Source: Mariniflexile sp. AS56
GTDB lineage: Bacteria > Bacteroidota > Bacteroidia > Flavobacteriales > Flavobacteriaceae
Direction: 5' to 3'
DNA length: 64,000 nucleotides
NCBI RefSeq assembly: GCF_030552475.1
Contig: NZ_JAUPED010000016.1
Span: 1-64,000, forward strand
In this document: piece by piece, positions 45,752-61,008 of the stretch
How the letters are laid out: each line of letters starts with the position of its first letter
Position numbering within the stretch: the first letter of the stretch is position 1
Notes under the pieces: generated by a model
Databases searched by the model: none
What the model saw: the letters and a program-made list of their open reading frames with translations, nothing else
What the model was told of the DNA's origin: nothing
Program-made: the position numbers and the translations under genes

Positions 45752-47233
45752 ATGACGAAATCCAAACTAACTCTATCACAACTAGAACAATACCTATCTA
45801 AAGCAGCATGGATTCTTAAAGGCCCCGTTGATTCATCAGACTTTAAAGTATATATTTTTCCACTACTATTTTTTAAAAGATTATCCGATGTCTATGATGA
45901 AGAGTATGCTTTAGCATTGGAGGAATCTGAAGGTGATGTAGAATACGCATCCTTACCAGAATTTCACAGGTTCGAAATTCCAGAAGGCTGCCATTGGAAA
46001 GACGTTAGAGAAACGACTACAAACGTTGGACTAGCTATTGAGAAAGCACTTCGAGGCATTGAGCAAGCCAATCAAGAATCACTCTATGGTATTTTTGGAG
46101 ATGCACAATGGAGTAATAAAAACAAATTATCAGATCGTTTATTAATTGATTTAATAGAGCACTTTTCTCAATATAGTTTATCTAATTCTTTAGTTGAGCC
46201 CGATATTCTTGGTAATGCTTACGAGTATTTAATCAAGCACTTTGCAGATTTAACCAATAAAAAAGCAGGTGAGTTTTACACACCCCGTTCTGTTGTGCAT
46301 TTATTAGGTATGATATTAGATCCACACGAAGGAGAAACTATTTATGATCCAGCTTGTGGAACAGGTGGAATGTTATTAGAGTGTGTAGACCATCTAAGAG
46401 AAAACAACGAAGACTATCGCACACTAAAACTATTTGGTCAAGAAAAAAACCTAACGTCTAGTTCTATTGCTAGAATGAACATGTTTTTACATGGAATTGA
46501 AGATTTTCAAATTTCGCGAGGAGATACTTTACGACAACCTGCATTTTTTGCAGCAGATGGTTTAAAAACCTTCGATTGTGTGATTGCAAATCCACCATTT
46601 TCATTAAAAGAATGGGGTGCGGAAAATTGGGCTAACGATCCTTTTGGTAGAAACATTGCAGGTGTTCCTCCAAAAGGGAATGGCGATATGGCTTGGGTCC
46701 AACACATGATAAAATCTATGAATAGCACGGGGCGTATGACGGTTGTTTTGCCTCATGGCGCTTTATTCAGAAAAGGAGCAGAGGGTAAAATTCGTCAAAA
46801 ATTATTAGAAGACGATTTGTTAGAAGCTGTCATTGGTTTAGGCCCAAATATCTTTTATGGTACCCAGTTAGCCGCCTGTGTCATGGTTTTTAAACAAAAC
46901 AAAGTAGCGTCTAAAAAAAATAAAGTATTGTTTATAGATGGCTCTGATCAAGTTCGAGTTGGTAGAGCTCAAAACTATTTAGAGACCGAACATATTAACC
47001 AACTGTTTGAATGGTATAATGGGTATAGCGATGTTGATAATTATGTGAAAGTGGCCTCAATAAAAGATATTAAAGAAAACGATTTCAACTTAAACATTCC
47101 TTTATATGTTGAAAAAATTATTGAAGATAATTTGCCAAGTGTTGAAGATGCATTGTCAGATTTAAAAGTGGCTTGGGAAGCAAGCCAAAAAGCAGAAGAA
47201 AAGTTTAAAACGATATTAAACGAGTTTATATAG
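45752..47233 (+). CDS. hsdM: type I restriction-modification methyltransferase subunit, first copy
   Basis: The 493-residue M subunit transfers methyl groups from SAM to adenine. It has the N-terminal helical HsdM domain (about 10-150, YIFPLLFFKRLSDVYDEE) and the N6-adenine methylase domain with SAM motif DPACGTGGM (from Asp199) and catalytic NPPF (Asn280). It opens an eight-gene run with gaps of 0-3 bases. It resembles the second HsdM at 49383 along its full length, but the two are clearly diverged. No HsdS lies next to it, so it may share the single HsdS downstream. Confidence 0.95.
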   Translation: MTKSKLTLSQLEQYLSKAAWILKGPVDSSDFKVYIFPLLFFKRLSDVYDEEYALALEESEGDVEYASLPEFHRFEIPEGCHWKDVRETTTNVGLAIEKALRGIEQANQESLYGIFGDAQWSNKNKLSDRLLIDLIEHFSQYSLSNSLVEPDILGNAYEYLIKHFADLTNKKAGEFYTPRSVVHLLGMILDPHEGETIYDPACGTGGMLLECVDHLRENNEDYRTLKLFGQEKNLTSSSIARMNMFLHGIEDFQISRGDTLRQPAFFAADGLKTFDCVIANPPFSLKEWGAENWANDPFGRNIAGVPPKGNGDMAWVQHMIKSMNSTGRMTVVLPHGALFRKGAEGKIRQKLLEDDLLEAVIGLGPNIFYGTQLAACVMVFKQNKVASKKNKVLFIDGSDQVRVGRAQNYLETEHINQLFEWYNGYSDVDNYVKVASIKDIKENDFNLNIPLYVEKIIEDNLPSVEDALSDLKVAWEASQKAEEKFKTILNEFI

Positions 47234-47234
47234 A

Positions 47235-49382
47235 ATGGAATTAAGACAGATATTAGATGGTGTTGAGTCTTTAGAGATGGTAATGCCAGAATTTCAAAGG
47301 GAATATGTATGGCCAATTGAAGATGCTAAACAATTATTAATTTCTATGTTTAAAGGGTATCCAACTGGTTGTCTTTTATTTTGGGAAACCGAGACACCAC
47401 CAGAAATAAAAAATAAGGCTGTAGATACTAATAAACTAGGACTAACAAAAGTCATTCTGGATGGGCAACAGCGGTTAACTACTTTGTATATGTTAATTAG
47501 AGGAGAAATACCACCATATTATACCATAGAAGATATTTTACAAGACCCAAGACATTTATATTTTAATGTGCTTTCTGGGGATTTTCAATACTATCAAAAG
47601 AAGCTTATGGAAAATAATCCTTTATGGCATTCTGTAACCAAATGTTTTGATGAAAATGACGTGGATAGTTTTGATATTGCTGAAAAACACAATGCAATCA
47701 ATGAAGATGTCGATTTTAAAGAAACAGCAAAGGCTATTGGTAAGAATTTAACCAAGTTGCGTGCTATTGAAAAAATGACATACCCTATTCTAACAGTTCC
47801 TAAAACTGCAAATATAGATGGAGCAATTGATGTTTTTGATAAAGTCAATTCTAAAGGAACAAAATTAACGGATGCGGAACTTGTCTTAACTCATGTTACA
47901 GGTGGTTGGCCACAAGCACGCCGTATTATGAAAAAGAAAATGTTAGAAATGAAAGATAATGGATTTGATTTCAGTCTTGATTTTTTAACACGTTGCATGG
48001 TAGTTGCTTTAACTAAGTCTGCGCTTTATAAAAAGAACTCTAAGTTAAAGTATGATAAATTTACTAAGGAAGATTACAAAGGAGCATGGTCTAAAGTAGA
48101 AAAAGCCTTAGATTATTTAATACCGATTTTAAAGCAAGATGGCTTAATATCATCAACAAATGATTTAAGTACAAATAATGCTTTAGTACCTATAATTGCT
48201 TATTTGGTTGAAAATGACAATAGATTCACGGGAAATTTAAAATACCAATTTTTATATTGGATGTTTTTAGCGTTGATTTGGTCTAGATATAGTGGTCAAA
48301 CAGATGCTCGATTAGATAAGGATATTTATATCATAAATAATGAGGAAGATATTATAGCTAATCTTGTTCAAGAAATTGAAGATAGTCGTGGCCGTTTAGA
48401 AGTTAAAGAAGCAGATATGGAAGGTCGTACTGCAGGACATCCTATCTATAAAATGCTTTACATCGTTACTAAAGCCAATAAAGCTGTAGACTGGTCTAAT
48501 GGCGGCGCAATTTATGGTACAATTGGCGATTATTATTCTATCCAAAGTCATCATATTTTCCCGCAAGCCTTTTTATATAGAAATGGTTATCAAGGCGATA
48601 ATCATATCGATAAAAAGAAAGTAAATGAGATTGCCAATAGAGCTTTTATTACTAGAGATACTAATTATTCCATAAGTGACAAAGCTCCTGAAATATATTT
48701 ATCAAAAGTAAAGGATGAATATCCAAACGCATTAGAAAAGCAATTTATTCCAGAAGATCCTAAATTGTGGTTGGCAGAAAACTATGACGCTTTTCTAAAA
48801 GAAAGAAGAGAAAAAATAGCTTCTGAAATTAATAACTTCTTGAAGTCATTAAAAAATCATCAGGCCGATTCTGATGCCATTATAGTTGACAAGCCAAGTA
48901 AAAGCTGGAGCGATTTTCTAAACAAAGGGGAAGATAATTTCACGGAATTTAAATCGTCATTGAGGTACTGTTTAAGAGAGGAAAAGCCTATGAACTATAT
49001 TGAACATAGTATCCTTAAAACCATCAACGCATTTTTAAACTCAGAAGGCGGAACATTAATTATAGGTGCAGATGATGAAGGAAATGTATTAGGTTTGGAT
49101 AATGATTATAATTCTTTCAGCAAAAAAGGGAAGGATGGTTTTTTATTACATTTTGATAATATGGTGATTAACGCTTTAGGCAAGGAACAACAGGCCGACA
49201 TTAATATAAAATTTGAACAAGTTGAAAATAAAGACTTTGCAGTTGTTGAGGTTAGTTCAAGCATCAAACCTGTGTTTTTAAGTGCTAATGGAAAGAAAGA
49301 ATTTTTTGTAAGACACGCCGCATCGTCACAAGCCTATGACATTAGTGAAGCTTATGAGTATATTAACAAACATTGGAACTAA
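47235..49382 (+). CDS. DUF262 / HNH / AlbA (Schlafen-like) fusion protein
   Basis: The 715-residue protein combines three parts. The N-terminal DUF262 domain (about 1-240) is ParB-like with VILDGQQRLTTL (Asp76), as in GmrS/GmrSD type IV enzymes. Next is a DUF1524/HNH-type segment with YSIQSHHIFPQAF (His439, His440). The C-terminal AlbA_2 domain typical of Schlafen-like proteins (about 560-715) has NFTEFKSS and NSEGGTLIIGADDEGNVLG. DUF262/HNH proteins cut modified DNA using NTP; AlbA domains bind nucleic acid. It begins one base after hsdM and ends directly before a second hsdM. The fusion is unusual; its target is unknown. Confidence 0.85.
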   Translation: MELRQILDGVESLEMVMPEFQREYVWPIEDAKQLLISMFKGYPTGCLLFWETETPPEIKNKAVDTNKLGLTKVILDGQQRLTTLYMLIRGEIPPYYTIEDILQDPRHLYFNVLSGDFQYYQKKLMENNPLWHSVTKCFDENDVDSFDIAEKHNAINEDVDFKETAKAIGKNLTKLRAIEKMTYPILTVPKTANIDGAIDVFDKVNSKGTKLTDAELVLTHVTGGWPQARRIMKKKMLEMKDNGFDFSLDFLTRCMVVALTKSALYKKNSKLKYDKFTKEDYKGAWSKVEKALDYLIPILKQDGLISSTNDLSTNNALVPIIAYLVENDNRFTGNLKYQFLYWMFLALIWSRYSGQTDARLDKDIYIINNEEDIIANLVQEIEDSRGRLEVKEADMEGRTAGHPIYKMLYIVTKANKAVDWSNGGAIYGTIGDYYSIQSHHIFPQAFLYRNGYQGDNHIDKKKVNEIANRAFITRDTNYSISDKAPEIYLSKVKDEYPNALEKQFIPEDPKLWLAENYDAFLKERREKIASEINNFLKSLKNHQADSDAIIVDKPSKSWSDFLNKGEDNFTEFKSSLRYCLREEKPMNYIEHSILKTINAFLNSEGGTLIIGADDEGNVLGLDNDYNSFSKKGKDGFLLHFDNMVINALGKEQQADINIKFEQVENKDFAVVEVSSSIKPVFLSANGKKEFFVRHAASSQAYDISEAYEYINKHWN

Positions 49383-50843
49383 ATGACCCAACAAAACCTA
49401 GAAAAATACCTTTGGGGAGCAGCAACCGCATTGCGTGGTACCATAGATGCAGGAGATTACAAACAATACATATTTCCGTTATTGTTTTTTAAACGTATTT
49501 GCGATGTGTACGATGAAGAATTTGCCAAAGCATTGGAAGAAAGCGATGGTGATTTAGAATACGCTGCCTTTGCCGAAAACCACCATTTTATAGTCCCAGA
49601 AAACGCCCATTGGAACACCGTACGCGAAACCACCGTAAATGTTGGTATTGCTATACAAGATGCCATGCGCGCTATTGAAAAAGCAAACCCAGAAACGCTT
49701 TACGGTATTTTTGGTGATGCATCTTGGACCAATAAAAACAGGTTGAGTGATGAAACGCTTACCAATCTTATAGAACATTACTCACAACACAAACTTAATT
49801 TAGAAAACGTACCAGACGACCAATTAGGTAATGCTTACGAATATTTAATTAAAGAGTTTGCAGACGATTCTGGCCATACCGCAGCAGAGTTTTACACCAA
49901 CAGAACGGTTGTAAAACTAATGACCATGATTATGGACCCACAACCAGGAGAATCTGTGTACGACCCAACCTGTGGCTCTGGTGGTTTACTATTAAACTGC
50001 GCGTTGCATTTACGTGATGAAGGCAAAGAATACAGAACCCTAAAATTATACGGACAAGAAATAAACCTCATTACTTCTGCCATAGCACGTATGAATATGT
50101 TTATGCATGGTATAGAAGAGTTTAGCATTGTTCGTGGCGACACACTTGCACAACCTGCCTTTTTAGAAAACGACACACTAAAAACATTTAACGTCATACT
50201 AGCAAACCCACCATACTCTATAAAAGCGTGGGACCAAAAAGCATTTACTAACGATCCTTTTGGACGTAATCTTTGGGGAACACCACCTCAAGGTTGTGCA
50301 GATTATGCATTTCAACAACACATACAAAAAAGTTTAGATACAAAAAATGGACGCTCTATTTCATTATGGCCTCATGGCATTTTATTTAGAGATTCTGAAG
50401 CCCAAATGCGTAGTAAAATGATTGAAGAAGATTTGGTCGAATGTGTCATTGGTTTAGGGCCAAATTTGTTTTACAATTCTCCAATGGAAGCTTGTTTGTT
50501 AATTACTAAAACCAACAAGAGTAAAGAGAAACAAGGAAAGGTTTTAATAATAAATGCCTTAAAAGAAGTAAAACAAGAAAAAAACATTGCTTTTTTAGAG
50601 CAAAAACATATTGATACTATTTTTAATGCTTACAAAGACTTTAAGAATATTGATGACTTTGCTAAAATTGTTTCTATTGAAGAAATATTGGAAAATAAAG
50701 GAAGCCTAAATATTGCACAATTTTTAAGTAATGTAGATACCAGTAATCCTGTTTTATCTGTAAATGAAGCTTTATCTAATTGGAAAGGACAATCTAAAAC
50801 CTTAGAAAAAAGTATGAATGAATTATTTGAAATCTTGAATTAA
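49383..50843 (+). CDS. hsdM: type I restriction-modification methyltransferase subunit, second copy
   Basis: The 486-residue protein has the same two-domain layout as the first copy: FPLLFFKRICDVYDEEF, SAM motif DPTCGSGG (from Asp194) and catalytic NPPY (Asn275). It starts immediately after the fusion gene and is followed without a gap by hsdS, so it is the canonical partner of HsdS. Base use is slightly richer in GC (ACC, AAC codons) than in its neighbours, which may mean separate origin. Confidence 0.95.
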   Translation: MTQQNLEKYLWGAATALRGTIDAGDYKQYIFPLLFFKRICDVYDEEFAKALEESDGDLEYAAFAENHHFIVPENAHWNTVRETTVNVGIAIQDAMRAIEKANPETLYGIFGDASWTNKNRLSDETLTNLIEHYSQHKLNLENVPDDQLGNAYEYLIKEFADDSGHTAAEFYTNRTVVKLMTMIMDPQPGESVYDPTCGSGGLLLNCALHLRDEGKEYRTLKLYGQEINLITSAIARMNMFMHGIEEFSIVRGDTLAQPAFLENDTLKTFNVILANPPYSIKAWDQKAFTNDPFGRNLWGTPPQGCADYAFQQHIQKSLDTKNGRSISLWPHGILFRDSEAQMRSKMIEEDLVECVIGLGPNLFYNSPMEACLLITKTNKSKEKQGKVLIINALKEVKQEKNIAFLEQKHIDTIFNAYKDFKNIDDFAKIVSIEEILENKGSLNIAQFLSNVDTSNPVLSVNEALSNWKGQSKTLEKSMNELFEILN

Positions 50844-51986
50844 ATGGAAACAATGACACAAAAAATAGATTTAAATAATTTAGATAAATCCGATTGGGAA
50901 GCATTTAAGTTTGAAGAAATTGCTGAAAAAATATCGGAAACAGTAAATCCAAATACAACCGATTTAGAAATTTATGTTGGTTTAGAGCATATTGACGCAG
51001 ACGATATTCACATTAGAAGATTTGGAACACCTAACGACGTTAAAGGTGGTAAATTAAGATGTTATCCTGGTGATGTTATATTTGGGAAACGTCGCGCATA
51101 CCAACGTAAAGCTGCTATTGTAAATTTTGAAGGTATTTGTTCGGCCCACGCATTTGTTTTTAGAGCAAATCCTGAAATAATAGACCCAAATTTATTTCCT
51201 TTCTTTTTGCATTCCGACCAATTTATGCACAGAATGGTTGATATTTCTGTAGGTGGTTTATCCCCAACCATAAACTGGGGAGATTTAAGGCAGCAGGAGT
51301 TTCTCCTCCCACCAAAAGACCAACAAGCCAAACTTGCTGAATTACTTTGGGCTATGGATGAAGTTATTGAGAGGGAAAATGAGGTTTTAATCAGATTGAA
51401 TGTCAATTATGCTTCAGAAAAAAAAGATATATACGAATCACAAGAAAATAAGAAAATAGTTTTAGGAGAAAAAATTAATATTTTATCTGGATTTGCATTT
51501 AAATCTAAATTATTTAATACAAGTAATGAAGGGATGCCTTTAATTAGAATTAGAGATATAGCAGAATCGAAAATAGAAACATACTATTCTGGTGAATTTG
51601 ATGAAAAGTATTTAATAAAAAGAGGAGATTTAATTGTAGGGATGGATGGTGATTTTATTATGAATATTTGGGATAATGAGGATGCTTTATTAAATCAAAG
51701 AGTTTTAAAAATCAGATTAAATGAGAATGAAAATTCGCTATTATTTAGTTACCTCAACCACTTCTTGCAAAAAGAATTAGATAAAATACATCTTGGAATT
51801 GGAGCTACGACAGTAAAGCATTTGGCGGTAAGTGATGTTCGAAAAATAAAGCTTCCAATCCCCAAAAATAATGTAAAAACTGTTATTGAAAAGTTAGATC
51901 TATTTAATACAAATATTAAAAATATCGAATACAAAATCTCAAGTTCCAAAGCCTTACAAAAGAGTTTAATTAATCAGGTATTTTAG
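50844..51986 (+). CDS. hsdS: type I restriction-modification specificity subunit
   Basis: The 380-residue S subunit chooses the DNA sequence through two target-recognition domains: about 15-150 (ending SPTINWGDLRQQEF) and about 200-340 (GFAFKSKLF). They are separated by the central helix KDQQAKLAELLWAMDEV and followed by a C-terminal helix (VIEKLDLFNTNIK). The product is rather short for HsdS but both domains look complete. An ATG-x-x-x-ATG start pair at 50844 and 50853 leaves the exact start uncertain by three codons. Confidence 0.92.
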   Translation: METMTQKIDLNNLDKSDWEAFKFEEIAEKISETVNPNTTDLEIYVGLEHIDADDIHIRRFGTPNDVKGGKLRCYPGDVIFGKRRAYQRKAAIVNFEGICSAHAFVFRANPEIIDPNLFPFFLHSDQFMHRMVDISVGGLSPTINWGDLRQQEFLLPPKDQQAKLAELLWAMDEVIERENEVLIRLNVNYASEKKDIYESQENKKIVLGEKINILSGFAFKSKLFNTSNEGMPLIRIRDIAESKIETYYSGEFDEKYLIKRGDLIVGMDGDFIMNIWDNEDALLNQRVLKIRLNENENSLLFSYLNHFLQKELDKIHLGIGATTVKHLAVSDVRKIKLPIPKNNVKTVIEKLDLFNTNIKNIEYKISSSKALQKSLINQVF

Positions 51987-51989
51987 GGT

Positions 51990-53690
51990 ATGGGTTACAG
52001 AATATTTTTTTCATTTCAATCAGACAGCCCAAAAGAATTAAATTATGTCTTTATTCGAGATGCAATAAAAAAGGCCATGTCGAAGATTTCTGATTATGAC
52101 ATTGAGGAACCACTTAGAATTGGCTTCCGTGAAAAAGGAGGAAATCCTCCGCTACTCGAAGCAATGCTCGATCAGTCTCGCGAATCAGACATAGTGATTT
52201 CTGATGTCACTTTCACATCTTCCAAGATATGGCAAACTCCGCCAACTGGATTTACAGAAGATGAAGGTCATTATTTTATAGAAATCCCGAAAAATGTCAA
52301 TTTGAAACCAGCTCCAAATCCGAATGTTTTACTTGAAACTGGTTATTCATGGGCATTAAAAGATTTTGAAAGAACAATCCTTGTAATGAACGAGGCATTC
52401 GGTCATCCCAAAAACTTCCCAGTAGACATGGAAGGACTTAGATACCCTATATCTTATAATTTATCGGATACAAAAAGCACAGATTTCAAAAAAATATTTA
52501 ATAATCTAGTAGAATCCATCAAACAAGCAATAAGTGATGCAATAAAATCAAGTATAAGGCATCAAATCAACGAGTTAAGGCCTTTGATTACACATGAAAC
52601 TTGGAAAAAGGACCATCCATTTCCATATTGCAAAGGACAGTATGCAAATAGTCTTATCTTAGATATAATAAATTTAATTAAAAACTATAGAAACCCAATA
52701 AGAGTGATTGGTTCAGATTGTATTGGCAAAACAAGATTATTAATAGAATCACTTTATTATGATAGCAATAAAGATAAATTGGCTAACATCTCTATATATT
52801 ATGATTTGTCATCTCCACTTTCTAATAGTGCTATTTTTACTCAACTAAATATTATTAAGGAAAAGCGGCAATTCATAATTTTAGTTTTTAACAATTGTCC
52901 ATTAGATGAACATAAAAAATTGGAAAAGTTTTTCCGAGGTTCCATGGTAAAATTTATAAGTATAGATTCTAGTGATGATATTGAGAAGGACGTAGCAGAT
53001 ATTAAAATTTCCGATGATCTGTTACATGAAAATTTCCGAAATATCACTAAAACGCATTTTCCATCAATGGATTATTCTACAATTATGGATTCTACAAATG
53101 GAGATTTAGATCAATTTATATTATCAATTAGTTCGGGTGCTGATTCTAAAGAAATTGTCAAGTCGTTTAATGAATTGCTACCAATTATTATTGGTACTGA
53201 GAATATGAGAAGAGGAGCAATTCCATTATTAACATCTGTCAAGCTATTTAAAATGGTGGGTGTTTCAGGTCAAAGAAAGAACCAAATCCAATTTATAAAT
53301 AGTTTTTTTATTAAGGAAGAAATTGACGAAACTGAAATTTTAATCGAAAACCTTATTTCAAAAAATTTATTACGTCAACAAGGTGATTTTATTTTAGATA
53401 ATGGTTTAGATGTTACATTAATTAATGATTGGATTAATTCTCAAGATGACATAGATATATCATTATTAATAAAAAAAGTATCTGAGAATAATATGTGGGC
53501 ATCTTTTAAAGATCACTTTTTTAAACTAATGGAACAAAAAGATTATTTGAATCAAATACAAGAAGAGGCAGGCATATTGCAAGATGATGACTTTATCAAT
53601 TCACAAGTTGGTAAAGATTTTTTAAACATACTTGCAGATAAGCATCGAAAATTAGTTTTGGAAGTTTTAAAAAGAAAAATAATAGGATAG
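51990..53690 (+). CDS. TIR-like / P-loop defence protein embedded in the R-M operon
   Basis: The 566-residue protein opens with a Rossmann-like domain (about 1-190: YRIFFSFQSDSPKELN, SDIVISDVTF, then PNPNVLLETGYSWALKDFER). This domain is common in defence-associated proteins and related to TIR or nucleoside-deoxyribosyltransferase folds. A P-loop follows at residues 241-249 (GSDCIGKTR), then ILVFNNCP as a weak Walker B, and helical C-terminal sequence. The layout resembles STAND/NLR-type proteins with an enzymatic N-terminus. It begins 3 bases after hsdS and ends 1 base before the next gene. Nucleotide or NAD hydrolysis is an inference. Confidence 0.7.
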   Translation: MGYRIFFSFQSDSPKELNYVFIRDAIKKAMSKISDYDIEEPLRIGFREKGGNPPLLEAMLDQSRESDIVISDVTFTSSKIWQTPPTGFTEDEGHYFIEIPKNVNLKPAPNPNVLLETGYSWALKDFERTILVMNEAFGHPKNFPVDMEGLRYPISYNLSDTKSTDFKKIFNNLVESIKQAISDAIKSSIRHQINELRPLITHETWKKDHPFPYCKGQYANSLILDIINLIKNYRNPIRVIGSDCIGKTRLLIESLYYDSNKDKLANISIYYDLSSPLSNSAIFTQLNIIKEKRQFIILVFNNCPLDEHKKLEKFFRGSMVKFISIDSSDDIEKDVADIKISDDLLHENFRNITKTHFPSMDYSTIMDSTNGDLDQFILSISSGADSKEIVKSFNELLPIIIGTENMRRGAIPLLTSVKLFKMVGVSGQRKNQIQFINSFFIKEEIDETEILIENLISKNLLRQQGDFILDNGLDVTLINDWINSQDDIDISLLIKKVSENNMWASFKDHFFKLMEQKDYLNQIQEEAGILQDDDFINSQVGKDFLNILADKHRKLVLEVLKRKIIG

Positions 53691-53691
53691 T

Positions 53692-55671
53692 ATGTTTAAT
53701 TTTGATGATATATTTAACTCTGACTGGAGAACGATTAATACTCTAGAAAAGCTGTCTCATTTTGAGGAAACTGCCAAAGAAAGTATTGAGCTTTTATATT
53801 CTCTTGCTCTAAAAAAAGAAGCAAATTCAAAGGATGCTGCTTTGTCATTTATAACCATGTTTCAAGTACATTTTGCAGAGACTTGTTTAAGCCTCACTGA
53901 TCGCACGCAAATAATTGAAAAATTAGAGAAAGAAAATGGATTGTCGGAATTATTAGTTAACGCTTATAGTCGGAGTCTTAAAGCACAGGGATTTAGTGGG
54001 AATATAAGAACTGAAGACGAAACGTATAAAAAAAATCAATATAAACCTATAAATGAGGAAATAATTGAATATTGGCGCTTTTCACTAACCAAACTCATTG
54101 ATACTTATATAAATAATCCTAATGGATTGAGAAATTCTGCTAGAGACGCCATTAAACTCAGACTTCAGGAACAATTAGCTCATGGTGTTTCAAAAGATAT
54201 TTTAGAATCATTAGAATTAATTATTAAATCAGAAGATGGGCTTAAAGACGATATTCGTGGAAAATTGTTAGAAGTAAAAATGGAGAGATTTGGATTGAGA
54301 AACGATGTTAAGGGATTAGTAGTAAATCTATTAGAAAGGAATGAACCTAAATCGTTAGAAGCAGACTTATCTGCAGTGGTTGTTAATGCACCTTGGTTAA
54401 GAGAAAGGAAAGAAGAAGGAGGTTATCGCGATTTGGCTTTGGACAAAGTTGAAGACTTAGTTCAAAAGATTATTGAAAAGAAAATCAATTGGATTGAGCA
54501 TATAGAAATCCTTCTAAAAGGCAATCAAAATCACACATTCTATTTTGCAGAAAAAATGAGTCAAATCTATCCTGATAAAGAGGAAATTCTAAAATATATG
54601 ATTTTGGCTTACAAAAACATTGATGTGAAAGAACAATCTTCAGTATTTGCATTGGGACTGATTAAAGGATCGGATAATGATGATTTTACTAGAATATTAA
54701 TCGATGCCTGTCTAACTGATGAAAGACATGCTTTACATGGTATTAGGGCAACCACCGCTTTAAAGGAAATAAAATTTGAAGACTTAAAAAAAATACTATC
54801 CATAATTGAAAAACACACAGAATTTTTATATCAAATAGAATATATTAATCTGAGTAACTTAACTAGTGATGAAATTATATCATTTATTGAAAGAGTTAAA
54901 GTTATAGATCACGCTTTCTCACTTCAGTTAATCTGGGAATATTTAAGACAAACTAAATTTTCTAAATATGGAGAATTAAATTCTTGGTTAAATGAACTTT
55001 TATGGGTAGATGATATCCTATCTTTTCGCTCATCCATTAATACGAGTTTACATATAGAGCTTTTAATTAAGAGGTCGATTGATAATGATCCTTCAGAGGA
55101 AAAGATTAAGTTTTTACTTGATAAAATAATTTTGGAGTACAAAAAGTTTCCAGTTAATGATAGTCTAATTGATGTTCTACTATTTTTCCTTTTGGAGGAA
55201 TATTTTGAGATCTCTTGGCATTATTTAGGTCATTTGATTGCCAAGGATAAAAAATCCACCTTTTCTCAAATGTTGTATTTTTTACAAAAATATAAATTCG
55301 ATACTAAAAATCTTGTCTCTTGGTCGGAAAAAGATTCTGATTACCCTGCAATTGCCATGAAATTTATGAGATTGCACAGTATGACCGATGAAGGTAAATT
55401 AGAATGGGATCCTATTACATTTGATTTTTTAGTTAAAAATTCGAATAATTCTGAAGTTTTTGAAACTTTATACAGACGGTTTTCATCATTTACCATTGTT
55501 GGGACAGCAACAGCTGAAAAACTACTTAATGAACGAAAAAATCTTCTAAAGCAACTTATAGGTAAAGGTAATGATGATTTTGACCCATTGACAAATAATC
55601 TTATTGAAAGACTAGAAAGTAGCATTAAATATGAAAGAAATTTTGGTGAGAATTACGAATTAGGAATGTAA
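53692..55671 (+). CDS. large helical-repeat protein, likely partner of the TIR-like protein
   Basis: The 659-residue protein is almost entirely predicted helical, rich in Leu, Glu and Lys, with no signal peptide and no catalytic motif I can see. The pattern of paired helices across its length suits a HEAT/TPR-like solenoid. It starts one base after the TIR-like gene and 3 bases precede hsdR. Solenoids form the sensor part of STAND proteins, so this gene may supply the sensing arm of the preceding ATPase as a separate polypeptide. That is inference; the family is not recognised. Confidence 0.65.
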   Translation: MFNFDDIFNSDWRTINTLEKLSHFEETAKESIELLYSLALKKEANSKDAALSFITMFQVHFAETCLSLTDRTQIIEKLEKENGLSELLVNAYSRSLKAQGFSGNIRTEDETYKKNQYKPINEEIIEYWRFSLTKLIDTYINNPNGLRNSARDAIKLRLQEQLAHGVSKDILESLELIIKSEDGLKDDIRGKLLEVKMERFGLRNDVKGLVVNLLERNEPKSLEADLSAVVVNAPWLRERKEEGGYRDLALDKVEDLVQKIIEKKINWIEHIEILLKGNQNHTFYFAEKMSQIYPDKEEILKYMILAYKNIDVKEQSSVFALGLIKGSDNDDFTRILIDACLTDERHALHGIRATTALKEIKFEDLKKILSIIEKHTEFLYQIEYINLSNLTSDEIISFIERVKVIDHAFSLQLIWEYLRQTKFSKYGELNSWLNELLWVDDILSFRSSINTSLHIELLIKRSIDNDPSEEKIKFLLDKIILEYKKFPVNDSLIDVLLFFLLEEYFEISWHYLGHLIAKDKKSTFSQMLYFLQKYKFDTKNLVSWSEKDSDYPAIAMKFMRLHSMTDEGKLEWDPITFDFLVKNSNNSEVFETLYRRFSSFTIVGTATAEKLLNERKNLLKQLIGKGNDDFDPLTNNLIERLESSIKYERNFGENYELGM

Positions 55672-55674
55672 ATT

Positions 55675-58641
55675 ATGGGATTCAACGAACTAAACAGTGT
55701 AGAAAACTACATCATAAAACAACTTACAGGTGTTAATCTTAACACTTATGAGATTTCAGAAGATAAAGCTTTGTATAATGGCTTTTGGGAATATAAATCT
55801 GCCAAAGAATTACAACGCTCGGTAAACGAAGTGTTATTGGAATCCGATTTAAAAAACGCATTAATTCTTTTAAACCCAGAAATTAATCAAAACCCAAATT
55901 TCGCAGACGAAGTAATCCATCAATTACGTGCTATTTTAATCTCAGTGCATCAGGTAGGCTTGGTTCGTGCGAATGAAGAATTTTTTAAATGGTTACAAGG
56001 TGATAAAACCATGCCTTTTGGAGAAAACAACAGGCACGTGCCTGTTCGTTTGATAGATTTTGACGAGTTAAAAAACAATAGTTTTATTGCTACCACACAG
56101 TTTCGTATTCATCATAGAGAAACTAAAATCCCTGATGTGGTATTGTTTATAAATGGTATTCCTGTGGTTATTGGGGAAGCTAAAACACCTATTCGCCCTG
56201 CTATAAGTTGGTTAGATGGCGCACATGAAGTCCATGATATTTACGAAAACACGGTATCACAATTATTCGTGCCTAATATTTTATCCTTCGCCACAGAAGG
56301 CAAAGAATTGTATTATGGTGGTGTAAGAACACCGTTAGAATTTTGGGCACCTTGGCGTTTAGAGAATGACGAAGATGCTATTGCAAAACGATTAGGGCTT
56401 GGTGATGTTGGTAAAGAATTATCGGACTTATTGCATCCAAAACGCTTATTAGATATATTGCAGAATTTTTCATTATTCACCACTAATAAAAAGAAGCAAC
56501 GCAATAAGGTTATTCCAAGATTTCAACAATACGAAGGTGCTAATAAAATAGTAGAACGTGTTAAAGAAGGCAAAATTAAAAAAGGGTTAATCTGGCATTT
56601 TCAAGGTTCAGGTAAATCATTATTAATGGTTTTTGCAGCTCAAAAACTACGACGGGAAAAAGACTTAAAAAGTCCAACCGTTATTGTTCTAGTAGATAGA
56701 ACGGATTTAGATACACAAATTACAGGGACCTTTAATGCCTCCGATATATCTAATGTTGAAACAACGGATAATATCAGTCAGCTTCAAAAACTATTAGAAA
56801 ACGATACGAGAAAGATCATTATTTCTATGATTCATAAGTTCAGGGATGCCAAACCGAATATGAATACCAGAGATAACATTATTGTGTTGGTAGATGAAGC
56901 GCATAGAACGCAAGAAGGTGATTTAGGTCGACAAATGCGTGCCGCTTTACCGAATGCCTTTTTATTCGGTTTAACAGGAACACCTGTAAATAAAGCCGAT
57001 AAAAATACGTTTTGGGCCTTTGGAGCTGAAGAAGATCAAGGAGGTTACATGTCAAGATATACATTCCATGATTCCATAAGGGATAATGCAACATTACCAC
57101 TTCATTTTGAACCGCGATTAGTAGATGTTCATGTAGATAAAGAAACTATTGATAAAGCTTTTGAAGAGTTTAAAGAAAGTGCAGCACTTACTGATGAAGA
57201 AGCCGATGCCTTAAATAAGAAGTCCGCTAAAATGGCGGCCTTTTTAAAGTCACCTGAGCGCGTTGCTAAAATTGTAGAGGATGTTGCTATTCATTTTAAA
57301 GAAAAAGTACAACCTCATGGTTTTAAAGCAATGATTGTAACCCCAGACAGATACGCTTGTGTGCAATATAAAGAAGAATTAGACAAGTATTTTCCTGAAG
57401 AAGCGAGTCGTGTGGTGTTTTCAACGTCGGCGAATGATGATTTTGATTTCAAACAAAAATGGGGGATTGATAAAAGTCAGCAAGAGAAAATAGTTGATGA
57501 GTTTAATGATGGACTATCAGATTTACAATTCATCATTGTGACGGCAAAATTGCTAACTGGTTTTGATGCACCTATTTTACAAACCATGTATTTAGATAAA
57601 TCTATAAAAGACCATACACTTTTGCAGGCCATTTGTAGAACGAATAGGTTGTTCCCCAACAAATTTTTTGGTCGTATTGTTGATTATTTTGGTGTGTTTG
57701 ATGATGCTGCTAAAGCTTTGCAGTTTGATGAAGAAAGTATAAAAACCGTTATTTCAAATTTAGCTGAGTTAAGAGATAAATTACCAGAAGCCATGAGGGA
57801 AACCTTATCTCATTTTGAAGGTGTTGATCGAACTATTGATGGTTTCGAAGGCCTAGAGGCGGCTCAAAACGCCATTGGCACTAATGAAAAGAAGGATGCC
57901 TTTGCTAGAGATTATAAATTCCTGTCTAAAATTTGGGAATCCTTATCTCCAGACACTATTTTGAATTTATATCAAGAAGATTATAAGTGGTTATCTCAGG
58001 TTTTTGAATCGGTTAGGCCAGCAGCAGATAATGTAGGTAAACTATTGTGGTTTTCGTTAGGTGCACAAAATACTAAATTAATCCATGAAAATATTCATGT
58101 GGGTGAAGTACATAAGCTGCAAGAGTTTGTTTTAGATGCAGATGTTATTGAAAATATTTTCAATAATCCAGATCCTAAAAATGCTAAGAAACTTGAAAAG
58201 CTTTTATTAAAACGCTTTAAAAAACATCCTGGAAATCCAAAATTCATATCTTTAAGTGAACGGTTGGAAGCCTTACGAGATCAGGCAGAACAAGGTTTAA
58301 TCACCTCTATAGAATTTGTAAAAGAGTTATGTAAATTAGCCAAAGAGACCGTTGAAGCCGAAAAGGAATTAGAAGATTTAATTATAGAAAAAACACCCAA
58401 AGCAGCATTGACAGATTTGTTTTTAGAGCTAAAAACCGAAGAAACACCAGCTGTTGTAGAGCGTATTGTCGAGGATATCGATGCGATTGTTAGGGTGGTG
58501 CGCTTTCCTGGTTGGCAAATTACAAGTTCTGGTGAGCGGGAGGTCCAAAAGTCATTACGTAAAGCATTATTAAAATATAAATTACATAAAGATCAAATGT
58601 TGTTTGAACGGGCCTATGCTTATATAAAGGAGTATTATTAA
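55675..58641 (+). CDS. hsdR: type I restriction endonuclease / translocase subunit
   Basis: The 988-residue R subunit cuts DNA after ATP-driven translocation. Its N-terminal nuclease domain has the PD-(D/E)xK residues Asp154 and Glu168-Ala-Lys170 (IPDVVLF, VIGEAK). The SF2 helicase part has Walker A HFQGSGKS (Lys314), DEAH at Asp407 and TAKLLTGFDAP as motif V. A C-terminal helical region (about 760-988) would bind HsdM. All expected motifs are intact, so the enzyme should be active. The stop codon overlaps the next ATG by one base. Confidence 0.95.
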   Translation: MGFNELNSVENYIIKQLTGVNLNTYEISEDKALYNGFWEYKSAKELQRSVNEVLLESDLKNALILLNPEINQNPNFADEVIHQLRAILISVHQVGLVRANEEFFKWLQGDKTMPFGENNRHVPVRLIDFDELKNNSFIATTQFRIHHRETKIPDVVLFINGIPVVIGEAKTPIRPAISWLDGAHEVHDIYENTVSQLFVPNILSFATEGKELYYGGVRTPLEFWAPWRLENDEDAIAKRLGLGDVGKELSDLLHPKRLLDILQNFSLFTTNKKKQRNKVIPRFQQYEGANKIVERVKEGKIKKGLIWHFQGSGKSLLMVFAAQKLRREKDLKSPTVIVLVDRTDLDTQITGTFNASDISNVETTDNISQLQKLLENDTRKIIISMIHKFRDAKPNMNTRDNIIVLVDEAHRTQEGDLGRQMRAALPNAFLFGLTGTPVNKADKNTFWAFGAEEDQGGYMSRYTFHDSIRDNATLPLHFEPRLVDVHVDKETIDKAFEEFKESAALTDEEADALNKKSAKMAAFLKSPERVAKIVEDVAIHFKEKVQPHGFKAMIVTPDRYACVQYKEELDKYFPEEASRVVFSTSANDDFDFKQKWGIDKSQQEKIVDEFNDGLSDLQFIIVTAKLLTGFDAPILQTMYLDKSIKDHTLLQAICRTNRLFPNKFFGRIVDYFGVFDDAAKALQFDEESIKTVISNLAELRDKLPEAMRETLSHFEGVDRTIDGFEGLEAAQNAIGTNEKKDAFARDYKFLSKIWESLSPDTILNLYQEDYKWLSQVFESVRPAADNVGKLLWFSLGAQNTKLIHENIHVGEVHKLQEFVLDADVIENIFNNPDPKNAKKLEKLLLKRFKKHPGNPKFISLSERLEALRDQAEQGLITSIEFVKELCKLAKETVEAEKELEDLIIEKTPKAALTDLFLELKTEETPAVVERIVEDIDAIVRVVRFPGWQITSSGEREVQKSLRKALLKYKLHKDQMLFERAYAYIKEYY

Positions 58642-60764
58642 TGGAATATGTTTTCAGGGAAATTATTAAGAAATGGCATGAAATAGACCATAAAGAAAAG
58701 GCATATAATGAAAAACAAATAACCAATTTATTATACAAACAAAAGATAGACCTAGAGTTGATTGAATATGCTTTAGAAGCGTATAGTTCTTATTTCTATC
58801 GTTTAAAAAAGTATTTGTACCTACCAAATTGGGGTAAAGTAATTAGTGATTTTCCTTCCTGGTTTAATTTAGTTGGTGATCAGGACCAAGAAGTTATAAA
58901 GGCGTTTATTGATGAAGAGAACGCCATTGAAGAGGATAATTCTAAGTTGTGGATTATAGCTAAAATTAATAGAAAGATTTCAAATTCTAGCTTTGGTTTT
59001 TTATATGAAGCCTTAATCTCATTACCAGATGGTACCTCGACACCTGGTCAAGAAGGAATTCCTATAAATTTATGGTGGCGAGAGCTTACAGAGAAGAACA
59101 ATGTTGAAGGAGTTTTTCTAGCTTACCACAGGAGGCTATCGACTGTTATTTTGAGGGTTTCAAATGAACTATCCGACGCACATTTAAACACGAATTTTAG
59201 ATTTAAACCAAAACCAATAAACTTTTTAAGGCAAATTAAACAAAGGTTTAATTCCGTTAAGAATGATGAATCCAATTTAACACATAAGTTATTTCATAGA
59301 AATGACTTTTTACAATTAGATAAGGAACCTGAAAAAGTAGCTGATTCAAGTATGAATTGTGCTCAAAATGATGCTTTATCTCGCGTATTTTCTCAAAATG
59401 TCACTTTTATTTGGGGGCCACCAGGTACAGGAAAAACATATACTTTATCTAAAATAATTACCCAAGCCTGTTGTCTTGGAATGCGAGTGCTTGCCGTTGG
59501 TATATCTAATGTTTCGGTAGATGTTCTAGGAAAAGAAATAATTAATGAATTTGAAAATTATAATGAAACTTCATTAAAACTTTTAAATGATAGAAAAGTT
59601 TTAAGGTTTGGTTATCCAGTACTTCCAGAAATTGTTAAAGATGATAGATTGTATCCAGATAAGGAAATTGTGGACAGTCTACGTAAAGAATACAGTGCTG
59701 TATTAAAAATTTTAAGAAGTAGAAACAATCAAAGCACTGAAAACAAAGCCATTAATAGAAATAAGCAAGTTGTGCTTAGAAACGATATTAAAAAGGTAAA
59801 CCAAAAAAGAATTGGAGATTCTAGATTGGTTTTTACTACGGCGGCGCAATGTTTTATTGCAGATAATTTTGAAAACGAAAAATTTGATCTTGTAGTAGTG
59901 GATGAAGTAGGAATGATGCCTTTAATCCAAACACTTGCAATGTCAGGTCTAACAAAAAACAAGTTTGTTGTAGCAGGAGATTTTAATCAATTAGGTCCGA
60001 TAAGTGCAGGTAAAACTGAAGCTGTTAATAACTGGTTTAATAGCGATATTTTTCAATATTTTAAAGACGTAGAAGGGGTTGTAGAAGATGTTCTAGTCAT
60101 GTTAACAGAACAAAGGCGCATGCATCCAGATATTTGTGAATTAATTAATGAACGGTTCTATAAGGGGAAATTAACATCATTTTATTCCGAAAATTTCAAG
60201 GAAATTAAAACCTTGTATGGTGAAATTAGCGATCCGTATTGTTTTATTCCTGTGACACCTAAAGATGGAGCACAAGTAAAATTAACCAAAGGAAGATCTA
60301 GAGTTAATAGTAAGTCTGCTCAGATCGTTACAGATTTGGTGGAAAGTGTCCTTAAAGGAAATAAAGACATCGAGATAGGTGTTATAACACCTTATAACGG
60401 ACAAGTAATTGATATTAGAAAAAAACTTAATAATAGAATACTTTCAAATGAAGACCTCGATAGAGTTAAAGTGGGAACGGTTCACTCTTTTCAAGGGTCT
60501 GGTTTTGATATGATTATCTATGATATTGTAGATAATTGTGAAAAGAATATTGGGATATTATACAAAGGATTTGGTGGTGAAAGATTAGTTAATGTAGCAC
60601 TTTCAAGAGCGAAGCATAAATTAATTATTGTTGGAGACCCAAAAGTTTTTACTATTTCTGATGAATTAGAAGAAGTTTCAAAAAAACTAAGATCTTTAAT
60701 GGTAGAACTTAGGATTTCAAAAAATCAATTATCCTTAAATTCAATAATTAATGTCATAAAATAA
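58641..60764 (+). CDS. SF1 (UPF1/Dna2-like) helicase, last gene of the R-M run
   Basis: The 707-residue protein has a divergent N-terminal region (about 1-235) and an SF1B helicase core: Walker A GPPGTGKTY (about 259-267), Walker B VVVDEVGMMP, AGDFNQLGPI, TEQRRMHPDICELIN, VGTVHSFQGSGFD and VALSRAKHKLIIVGD. These AAA_11/AAA_12 motifs mark DNA or RNA helicases often found in defence islands. It is translationally coupled to hsdR (1-base overlap). It is not a normal type I component, so it probably adds a function to the system. Confidence 0.9.
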   Translation: MEYVFREIIKKWHEIDHKEKAYNEKQITNLLYKQKIDLELIEYALEAYSSYFYRLKKYLYLPNWGKVISDFPSWFNLVGDQDQEVIKAFIDEENAIEEDNSKLWIIAKINRKISNSSFGFLYEALISLPDGTSTPGQEGIPINLWWRELTEKNNVEGVFLAYHRRLSTVILRVSNELSDAHLNTNFRFKPKPINFLRQIKQRFNSVKNDESNLTHKLFHRNDFLQLDKEPEKVADSSMNCAQNDALSRVFSQNVTFIWGPPGTGKTYTLSKIITQACCLGMRVLAVGISNVSVDVLGKEIINEFENYNETSLKLLNDRKVLRFGYPVLPEIVKDDRLYPDKEIVDSLRKEYSAVLKILRSRNNQSTENKAINRNKQVVLRNDIKKVNQKRIGDSRLVFTTAAQCFIADNFENEKFDLVVVDEVGMMPLIQTLAMSGLTKNKFVVAGDFNQLGPISAGKTEAVNNWFNSDIFQYFKDVEGVVEDVLVMLTEQRRMHPDICELINERFYKGKLTSFYSENFKEIKTLYGEISDPYCFIPVTPKDGAQVKLTKGRSRVNSKSAQIVTDLVESVLKGNKDIEIGVITPYNGQVIDIRKKLNNRILSNEDLDRVKVGTVHSFQGSGFDMIIYDIVDNCEKNIGILYKGFGGERLVNVALSRAKHKLIIVGDPKVFTISDELEEVSKKLRSLMVELRISKNQLSLNSIINVIK

Positions 60765-61008
60765 ATTATGGACCAATCATGAGGTTGGTGTTTTTCAATA
60801 TCACTTAAAGCCATCGGTTATAGTTATTAGGGTTCGCCTTTTATCCACAATATTTGTACCCAGGAAATCTGAAAAACTTAACTTTTATACATAAATGTTG
60901 GGTGTTTGAGTGCGAGGATTTTCTGAATAAAAATTCGACGTAATAAACACGCAACTACTTTTTGTTTTAGTACTTATGCGTAATTATTTTCATATAATGT
61001 CACATCTG

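What the first reader, a model, noticed from the sequence alone, without database searches (positions are those of the whole stretch)
45752..60764. Eight-gene type I R-M run with four non-canonical passengers
hsdM, DUF262/HNH/AlbA fusion, hsdM, hsdS, TIR-like/P-loop protein, helical-repeat protein, hsdR and an SF1 helicase follow each other with 0-3 base gaps or a 1-base overlap. Canonical type I loci have only hsdR, hsdM and hsdS. The tight packing implies one transcript and perhaps one composite defence system combining modification, modified-DNA cleavage and a TIR/STAND-type abortive arm.
Basis: partly seen in the sequence, partly recalled or inferred. Interest (0 to 1): 0.8.

Follow-up and report, generated by a model that had tools for sequence, protein, structure and literature searches.

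The report
Type I restriction operon carrying swappable defences
Eight tightly packed bacterial genes turn out to be a known two-methylase DNA restriction system with other anti-virus genes slotted between its own genes, and in related bacteria those slots hold different genes.

Summary
Both hsdM genes belong to the core, a non-canonical m6A/m4C type I R-M system of the PacII kind: M1 (AGEF/NPPF), M2 (AAEF/NPPY), S and R. The other four ORFs are cargo: a GmrSD/BrxU-like type IV enzyme with an AlbA_2 tail (between M1 and M2), a TIR-like/P-loop protein plus a helical-repeat protein (between S and R), and a UPF1-like helicase after R. Of 80 related loci, 72 have M2 downstream of M1. Their slots hold different cargo (GmrSD, Septu, Gabija, Tiamat; a type III-A retron elsewhere) or nothing, and DNA homology breaks at slot borders. 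g5 and g6 are one protein in two genes: a fused 1228-aa form lies in the same slot of another genome, and a third has the split pair after S. A single composite machine is not supported; a probably co-transcribed platform of swappable, probably independent defences is. Control: classical single-M type I loci carry inserts at least as often, and embedding is already published. New, as far as searched: the slot map of this family and the split TIR form of a PD-lambda-4-like protein.

The parts
45752..47233 (+). g1 = HsdM1 (M1-type subunit, predicted m6A), core
   Evidence: Pfam N6_Mtase 1.6e-103; best PDB match PacII 7vru_A 1.9e-167 (7VRU = PacII); AGEF at 172, NPPF at 280
47235..49382 (+). g2 = GmrSD/BrxU-like (HEC-05) type IV enzyme: DUF262 + HNH, with a C-terminal Schlafen AlbA_2 domain; cargo in the M1|M2 slot
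   Evidence: GmrSD_N 6.8e-29, AlbA_2 4.5e-16; PADLOC HEC-05 5.5e-48; QREYVW, DGQQR, HHIFP present; PDB 7p9k DUF262 protein 5.5e-11 over residues 3-53
49383..50843 (+). g3 = HsdM2 (M2-type subunit, predicted m4C), core
   Evidence: best PDB match PacII 7vru_B 5.6e-180; the residue aligned with position 29 of that chain is R18; AAEF at 167, NPPY at 275
50844..51986 (+). g4 = HsdS with two target-recognition domains, core
   Evidence: Methylase_S, 2 stretches, 1.7e-19; PADLOC Specificity_I 4.7e-93
51990..53690 (+). g5 = TIR-like domain (about 1-160) + P-loop region; front half of a split PD-lambda-4_A/STAND-like protein; cargo in the S|R slot
53692..55671 (+). g6 = all-helical repeat protein; back half of the split protein; cargo in the S|R slot
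   Evidence: collinear with the C-terminal half of a 1266-aa Thalassobaculum protein and of a 1228-aa fused protein in L158; helical model, mean pLDDT 64, pTM 0.42
55675..58641 (+). g7 = HsdR, core
   Evidence: HSDR_N, SWI2_SNF2; TIGR00348 1.1e-162; PD...ExK, GSGKS, DEAHR motifs
58641..60764 (+). g8 = SF1 (UPF1/IGHMBP2-like) helicase; cargo after R, start overlaps the hsdR stop by 1 nt
   Evidence: AAA_12 3.1e-37, AAA_11 2.7e-23; IGHMBP2-family TIGR00376 1.7e-49, below its cutoff; helicase motifs present
60772..60789 (+). terminator-like hairpin followed by a T-run, at the end of the operon
   Evidence: a consensus match; number of sites close to the shuffles

Best explanation
This is one operon built on a non-canonical m6A/m4C type I restriction-modification core (M1, M2, S, R) that carries four cargo genes at its gene borders. 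M1, M2 and S should form a heterotrimer that puts m6A on one strand and m4C on the other strand of a bipartite site. With HsdR it should translocate on and cut unmodified incoming DNA (inferred from motifs and the PacII structure, not shown here). The cargo adds separate lines of defence from the same transcript. g2 should cut DNA whose modified cytosines let it escape HsdR. g5+g6 should act as one two-part sensor-effector: g6 repeats sense, the g5 P-loop region switches, the TIR-like domain executes, probably through NAD+. g8 is an accessory UPF1-like helicase of unknown target. Cargo is exchanged between lineages at the gene borders, most simply by recombination in the conserved core genes. 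Shown: gene identities, recurrence of the core, cargo turnover, and kinship of g5/g6 to single fused proteins. Inferred: co-transcription, enzymatic activities, the recombination route and independence of action.
For: Core: g1 and g3 best match the two different M chains of PacII 7vru with the motif pairs described for this class (PMC9613975 passages). Of 80 related loci from many phyla, 72 have M2 downstream of M1. Cargo turnover: inserts of about 100 aa or more in slot A (M1|M2) 33 of 72, B (M2|S) 20 of 57, C (S|R) 9 of 46; ORFs of 200 aa or more directly after R in 8 of 33. Dokdonia L034 has M1 91%, M2 81% and (truncated) R 90% identical, yet a 23%-identical GmrSD in A and Septu in C. blastn homology to six relatives stops within 25 nt of the M1 end and resumes within 6 nt of the M2 start. 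Whole known systems occupy slots: Gabija GajA+GajB in L097; Septu in a five-locus cluster, with L034, L060 and L067 PtuA and L034 and L060 PtuB scored directly; type III-A retron PRTase+RT in L016; TmtA in L038, L048, L061. g5+g6 as one unit: fused 1228-aa homologue in the same slot (L158), split pair directly after S in L051, collinearity with a 1266-aa protein.
Against: No transcript or phenotype data. GmrSD genes are not placed at random: 13 of 72 slot A, 1 of 57 slot B, 0 of 46 slot C. The three loci with a TIR-type PD-lambda-4-like protein (window, L051, L158) also all have a GmrSD-type gene in slot A, so some functional pairing cannot be excluded. Recombination was inferred from homology borders, not tested with trees; one border (R start in L082) lies 219 nt inside the gene, and homology fades inside M2 or S on the S side. 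R was reached in only 47 of 80 loci.
Confidence: 0.8

Rival explanations
1. A single composite defence system in which the modification subunits, the GmrSD enzyme, the TIR/STAND pair and the helicase cooperate in one pathway.
For: Tight packing; GmrSD genes concentrate in the M1|M2 slot (13 of 72, against 1 of 57 and 0 of 46); a GmrSD-type gene accompanies the TIR-type protein in 3 of 3 loci.
Against: The exact set was seen in 0 of 80 related loci (R reached in 47); 10 of the 13 slot-A GmrSD proteins are 20-34% identical to g2 and 3 give no BLAST hit to it; 18 of 46 complete operons have no cargo of 100 aa or more; full-length homologues of g2 (35-40% identical) stand outside hsd operons on haloarchaeal and Sinorhizobium plasmids.
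Confidence: 0.1
2. Guardian model: the S|R-slot TIR/STAND pair watches the type I complex and kills the cell when a phage inhibitor (Ocr/ArdA type) disables it, as PrrC does for EcoprrI.
For: PrrC, embedded in a type I locus, works this way (PMC12707154 passage); Ocr and ArdA bind PacII M1M2S (PMC9613975 passage); TIR-type PD-lambda-4-like proteins were seen only directly after S of this core, 3 of 3 (R is beyond the stretch in L051), one of them (L158) found by a search blind to context.
Against: PD-lambda-4_A-like proteins with the other N-terminus show no hsd gene nearby in L153-L156 and L159; no trigger data; L051 g5 lacks the GKT of the P-loop; only three loci.
Confidence: 0.08
3. Chance neighbours: unrelated genes with their own promoters that happen to abut.
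For: Consensus promoter scans are uninformative here (67 found, 75.8 expected), so internal promoters are not excluded.
Against: Seven junctions of 3 nt or less in a row against 1 of 18 upstream in the window; the same slots are used in many genomes.
Confidence: 0.02

Closest known systems
PacII-type non-canonical m6A/m4C type I R-M (M1M2S; PMC9613975)
   Same: Two distinct M subunits with AGEF/NPPF and AAEF/NPPY motifs; each window HsdM has a different PacII chain as best solved match
   Different: Here the genes are separated by cargo; the passages seen say nothing of cargo. Methylation is unproven here
TgvAB embedded in the Vibrio cholerae VPI-2 type I operon (PMC11411939)
   Same: GmrSD-family type IV enzyme lying within a type I R-M operon, adding defence against modified phage DNA
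   Different: TgvAB is a two-protein system; g2 is one polypeptide with an AlbA_2 tail, lies between two hsdM genes, and shares the operon with further cargo
BrxU / HEC-05
   Same: DUF262 + HNH single-chain architecture (HEC-05 5.5e-48)
   Different: Extra C-terminal AlbA_2 domain; embedded in an m6A/m4C type I operon rather than in BREX or Hma
DarTG2 in the EPEC type I locus (RRDM island, PMC12255303)
   Same: A whole defence module between hsdS and hsdR; the authors call the site a potential recombination hotspot
   Different: Toxin-antitoxin module and a repressor there; TIR/STAND-like pair here
PD-lambda-4 protein A
   Same: g5+g6 are collinear with a full-length PD-Lambda-4_A match (P0001: 5.8e-111, 1-1277 of 1283); fused L158 matches at 6.6e-42 over 218-725 of 1283
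   Different: TIR-like N-terminus instead of the family's own; split into two genes; window g5 alone matches only 226-325 at 1.5e-6
Mokosh MkoA
   Same: UPF1-like helicase core (5.1e-63 over 535-1082 of 1112)
   Different: Only that part matches; no other protein of the run showed a Mokosh match among the families listed

Membership tests
m6A/m4C (PacII-type) type I R-M | Two HsdM subunits, one AGEF/NPPF and one AAEF/NPPY | tested here: met
   motif definitions from PMC9613975
m6A/m4C (PacII-type) type I R-M | Each HsdM closest to the matching PacII subunit | tested here: met
   g1 to 7vru_A, g3 to 7vru_B; 7VRU is PacII M1M2S; chain B carries AAEF/NPPY, so chain A is M1 by exclusion
m6A/m4C (PacII-type) type I R-M | HsdS with two TRDs and HsdR with nuclease and motor motifs | tested here: met
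m6A/m4C (PacII-type) type I R-M | m6A on one strand and m4C on the other of one motif | not testable with these tools
   needs SMRT sequencing
GmrSD/BrxU (HEC-05) type IV | DUF262 with QR..W and DGQQR motifs | tested here: met
   (motif choice recalled)
GmrSD/BrxU (HEC-05) type IV | HNH (DUF1524-type) nuclease motif | tested here: met
   HHIFP at 439 (motif recalled); Pfam gives no separate GmrSD_C match, but the HEC-05 profile is covered 28-595 of 600
GmrSD/BrxU (HEC-05) type IV | Cleavage of modified-cytosine DNA | not testable with these tools
   biochemistry needed
PD-lambda-4 | Full-length match to protein A | tested here: not met
   window g5 matches 226-325 only and g6 has no match; collinearity and the L158 fusion show kinship of the NTPase-repeat part only
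PD-lambda-4 | Second protein (B; recalled) | tested here: inconclusive
   no PD-Lambda-4_B match shown among the eight proteins (only the best 25 families shown for three of them); whether the library holds such a model was not checked
STAND-type (Avs-like) sensor | Effector, P-loop NTPase and repeat sensor in that order | tested here: met
   order shown by collinearity; Walker A GSDCIGKT at 241; the P-loop is degenerate in L051
STAND-type (Avs-like) sensor | Significant STAND/NACHT profile match | tested here: not met
   none for g5 or g6
CAP12/PCTIR TIR (PF10137) | Profile match above the curated cutoff | tested here: inconclusive
   window 17.4 bits against cutoff 24.7; 10 of 11 aligned members match at E<=0.05, best 1.4e-7; 3 of 11 also match Nuc_deoxyrib_tr
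Mokosh | MkoA beyond the helicase core, plus partner | tested here: not met
MADS | MAD2/MAD5 equivalog cutoffs | tested here: not met
   83.5 of 720 and 32.6 of 400 bits

The most novel reading that the evidence does not exclude
The S|R slot of m6A/m4C type I operons holds a dedicated guardian: a TIR/STAND-like protein, here split in two genes, that senses inhibition or occupancy of the M1M2S-R complex and triggers NAD+ loss, while the GmrSD in the M1|M2 slot covers hypermodified phages. The operon would then be a three-layer defence in which anti-restriction proteins themselves set off abortive infection.
Probability: 0.1. Interest if true: 0.8.

Novelty: new variant of a known kind. Interest (0 to 1): 0.5.

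Why it matters
It replaces an apparent one-off eight-gene system with a general pattern: an m6A/m4C type I operon whose gene borders serve as docking slots for other defences, including whole Gabija, Septu and retron-type modules. Such slots are a practical place to look for undescribed defence genes (L040's 452-aa slot-A protein, for example, matches no Pfam or PADLOC family at E<=0.001). It also gives a fission/fusion series (window, L051, L158) for a TIR form of a PD-lambda-4-like sensor, so the sensor and effector halves can be tested apart.

Tried and rejected
Frameshift or sequencing error between g5 and g6: rejected, because L051 has the same two-gene split at 37%/33% identity (alignments), while L158 shows the fused state. 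That cargo embedding is special to m6A/m4C systems: rejected by the classical control, 22 of 29 against 27 of 46 (14 of 17 in the window's similarity group) with inserts of 200 aa or more. That the second hsdM is a passenger: rejected, although L027 and L028 show M2-S-R loci in which no M1 was seen. MADS and Mokosh membership: not met.

Led nowhere: the first genome-contig scan with g5 (none of 90 stretches confirmed); g6 in 98 relatives at E<=1e-5 (none); g8 in 396 other family genomes at E<=1e-30 (none); the g5 profile in 394 other genomes of the order at E<=1e-25 (none); the g5 structure model (pLDDT 43, not used); Foldseek on g6 (only weak helical-repeat matches, TM 0.34 or less in the 50 rows shown); PDB profile search with g6 (one hit at E=0.85); promoter scans (no excess over shuffles).

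Slots were counted only where both flanking genes were found (72, 57 and 46). Eight loci without M2 fell out: in seven the contig ends, 0 to about 1.5 kb after M1; L083 has 3.8 kb more with no M2 recognised. In L037, L038, L048 and L051 the stretch ends before R, so their inserts after S are not in the slot-C count. The 'group' of the window is an identity threshold (M1 69% or more), not a tree clade. ORFs were called by a simple script that keeps the longest ORFs and may miss or mis-start genes. The control holds 34 loci: 32 of the 34 single-M places (31 plus L029; G737 and G760 were not fetched) and two plasmid loci (L032, L033); 29 were complete; inserts were counted, not identified. One search ended in a script error and was repeated.
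Full report
OBSERVATION. The eight ORFs are where the finding puts them, all on the plus strand, separated by +1, 0, 0, +3, +1, +3 and -1 nt. Upstream in the window (236-42369) only 1 of 18 successive plus-strand junctions is 3 nt or less. A terminator-like hairpin with a T-run begins at 60772, 8 nt past the last stop. The packing strongly suggests one transcript, but no RNA evidence is available. The window lies on contig C8 of a 4.65-Mb genome.

THE CORE. g1 and g3 are 52% identical HsdMs. They are not duplicates of one kind. g1 has the AGEF and NPPF motifs and its best solved relative is chain A of 7vru (1.9e-167). g3 has AAEF and NPPY and its best is chain B (5.6e-180). 7VRU is PacII M1M2S. 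PMC9613975 (abstract and found passages read) describes this class: M1 makes m6A on one strand, M2 makes m4C on the other, and M2 carries a conserved R29; the residue aligned with it in g3 is R18. g4 is a two-TRD HsdS and g7 a complete HsdR. The 2016 paper that I recall as the first description of the class was not held.

HOW WIDESPREAD THE CORE IS. A scan with ten aligned M1 proteins returned 80 loci, at 56-91% identity to window M1, from Bacteroidota, Pseudomonadota, Planctomycetota, Verrucomicrobiota, Chloroflexota, Actinomycetota, archaea and others (phyla read from the record titles). M2 follows M1 in 72 of 80. In seven of the others the contig ends first; L083 is unclear. Both motifs were found in 78 of 80 M1 and 69 of 72 M2 ORFs; the three M2 misses are short or split ORFs. 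M1-M2-S-R operons without inserts occur on a Streptomyces and an Exiguobacterium plasmid. Two loci, L027 and L028, have M2-S-R with no M1 seen.

THE CARGO SLOTS. Counting same-strand ORFs of about 100 aa or more between core genes, slot A (M1|M2) is filled in 33 of 72 loci, slot B (M2|S) in 20 of 57 and slot C (S|R) in 9 of 46. Use differs between groups. Where M1 is at least 69% identical to the window's: A 22 of 30, B 2 of 26, C 7 of 17. In the rest: A 11 of 42, B 18 of 31, C 2 of 29. An ORF of 200 aa or more starts directly after R in 8 of 33. Occupants include known systems: Gabija GajA (E=0) and GajB (4.6e-272) in slot B of L097; Septu PtuA/PtuB after S (L034, L060; L067 PtuA scored; L044 and L048 by clustering); TmtA in L038, L048 and L061; a type III-A retron PRTase and reverse transcriptase between S and R of L016; a YhcG-type nuclease (PDC-S02) in slot B of L020; an AAA_13 protein (PDC-S06) in slot B of L018. 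In L037, L038, L048 and L051 the stretch ends before R, so 'after S' is all that is shown there. GmrSD-type genes are concentrated in slot A: 13 of 72, plus L043 whose contig ends, against 1 of 57 in B and 0 of 46 in C.

TURNOVER. The Dokdonia locus L034 is the closest by M1: M1 91%, M2 81% and R 90% (R truncated at the locus end). Yet its slot A holds a GmrSD only 23% identical to g2 and its slot C holds Septu. At DNA level (blastn blocks of 80 nt or more, E<=1e-5) L034 matches the window at 45747-47238, 49377-50546, 51297-51400 and from 55675 on, with nothing in slot A or C apart from weaker M1-to-M2 cross matches. In six loci without a close g2 (L034, L044, L047, L051, L067, L082) homology stops within 25 nt of the M1 end and resumes within 6 nt of the M2 start. 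At the R start it resumes within 6 nt in L034, L044, L047 and L067, but 219 nt inside R in L082. On the S side it fades inside M2 (L034, L047, L082) or S (L044, L051, L067), as expected of variable target domains. Conversely, L043 matches without a break across the M1/g2 junction (45764-48433) and L051 across the S/g5 junction (51927-52399). Cargo therefore changes at gene borders while the core persists. Recombination in the core genes is the simplest cause, but it was not tested with trees.

CONTROL. Of 34 classical single-M type I loci, 32 from the phylum sample and two from plasmids, 29 were complete. Inserts of 200 aa or more lie between M and S in 14 of 29, between S and R in 19 of 29, and in either in 22 of 29. 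The m6A/m4C set gives 27 of 46, and 14 of 17 in the window's group. Carrying inserts is thus common to type I operons, at least in this phylum, and not a mark of this core. The inserts of the control loci were not identified, except that GmrSD-type ORFs lie in or near four of them (L118, L119, L127, L134).

G2. Single-chain GmrSD of the BrxU/HEC-05 kind with QR..W, DGQQR and HNH motifs and an added AlbA_2 domain. Full-length relatives (35-40% identical) stand outside hsd operons on two haloarchaeal plasmids and on Sinorhizobium pSymA, where a type I locus lies about 3 kb away. Of the slot-A GmrSDs only L041 matches the tail at E<=0.01 (L043 is cut before it). The likely role is cutting DNA with modified cytosines, as for TgvAB embedded in a V. 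cholerae type I operon (PMC11411939, passages read) and BrxU (PMC12707154 passage).

G5 + G6. g5 has an N-terminal domain whose relatives match the CAP12/Pycsar TIR family (10 of 11 at E<=0.05, best 1.4e-7; window 0.0044), with an invariant NPN...E.G motif, then a P-loop (GSDCIGKT). g6 is all-helical. Together they are collinear with a 1266-aa Thalassobaculum protein that is a full-length PD-Lambda-4_A match (5.8e-111). A search with that family in 295 genomes found one locus, L158: M1-[GmrSD]-M2-S-[1228-aa protein covering g5 1-555 and g6 17-654]-[181, 231]-R. L051 has the split pair directly after S at 37% and 33% identity, but its g5 lacks the GKT of the P-loop. The six other PD-lambda-4-like proteins found in 395 genomes of the phylum resemble the Thalassobaculum N-terminus instead; of these L157 lies beside an hsdR-like gene, and the others show no hsd gene in the stretch read. 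A 363-aa relative of the TIR-like domain alone lies in slot A of L085. So g5+g6 are best read as one functional unit, and the TIR form joined to the PD-lambda-4-like part has so far been seen only after S of this core (3 of 3 loci). A STAND-like sensor with a TIR effector is the most likely mechanism; TIR and NTPase activity are not shown, and no STAND profile matches.

G8. UPF1/IGHMBP2-like SF1 helicase with its motifs present. A relative (26%) lies after S in L037, and by clustering another, cut by the locus end, in L038; each directly follows a 589/590-aa protein, the L037 one matching no Pfam family. A 1102-aa relative lies upstream of M1 in L048. No partner for g8 is evident in the window. 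It is the least explained passenger.

COMPARISON WITH WHAT IS KNOWN. Embedding of defence genes in type I loci is established: PrrC in ecoprrI (PMC12707154 passage), TgvAB (PMC11411939 passages), and DarTG2 between hsdS and hsdR, with that site proposed as a potential recombination hotspot (PMC12255303 passages); the latter two cite work by Payne and colleagues on embedded defences, which I did not read. I found no paper describing cargo slots in m6A/m4C type I operons or a TIR form of PD-lambda-4 in the listings of my ten searches, but none asked for the slots in so many words, and this library lacks most subscription journals and preprints.

VERDICT. It is also a clear and testable variant. 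The composite single machine is not supported. A probably co-transcribed platform of swappable, probably independent modules is.

Noticed in passing
L116, L119-L124, L128, L130, L132, L133, L136-L143, L029 (upstream of hsdM): In 20 of 34 classical type I control loci a ~184-228-aa ORF matching the second half of the HsdS profile lies directly upstream of hsdM, in addition to any full HsdS downstream: a single-TRD half-HsdS.
   Followed up: partly
L068, L079, L081, L085, L092: The M2 ORF is 893-957 aa and no separate S was found before R: apparent M2-S fusions, in archaea and several bacterial phyla by record title.
   Followed up: no
control loci, directly after hsdR: In 21 of 29 classical type I loci an ORF of 180-320 aa with an HExxH motif starts close after hsdR, like the SprT-type metalloprotease annotated after hsdR in L032.
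   Followed up: partly
L039 and L053, after hsdR: An 841/849-aa ORF with ~25% similarity to the methylase overlaps the hsdR stop by 1 nt in both; both also carry a 613/612-aa GmrSD in slot A.
   Followed up: no
L040:11422-12780: A 452-aa slot-A occupant with no Pfam or PADLOC match at E<=0.001.
   Followed up: partly
window 39142-42369: 1075-aa leucine-rich-repeat protein with similarity to internalin-type LRRs, absent at E<=1e-50 from 5 other genomes of the genus, upstream of the region.
   Followed up: partly
window 23488-26688: SusC/RagA-family outer-membrane protein; the upstream part of the window may be nutrient-uptake genes rather than a defence island.
   Followed up: no
L004:13977-14984: A stand-alone 335-aa relative of the g5 N-terminal TIR-like domain lies near the mobH relaxase gene on a conjugative Providencia plasmid; the tblastn listing shows the same match on many Providencia, Proteus and Morganella plasmids, whose surroundings I did not look at.
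   Followed up: no
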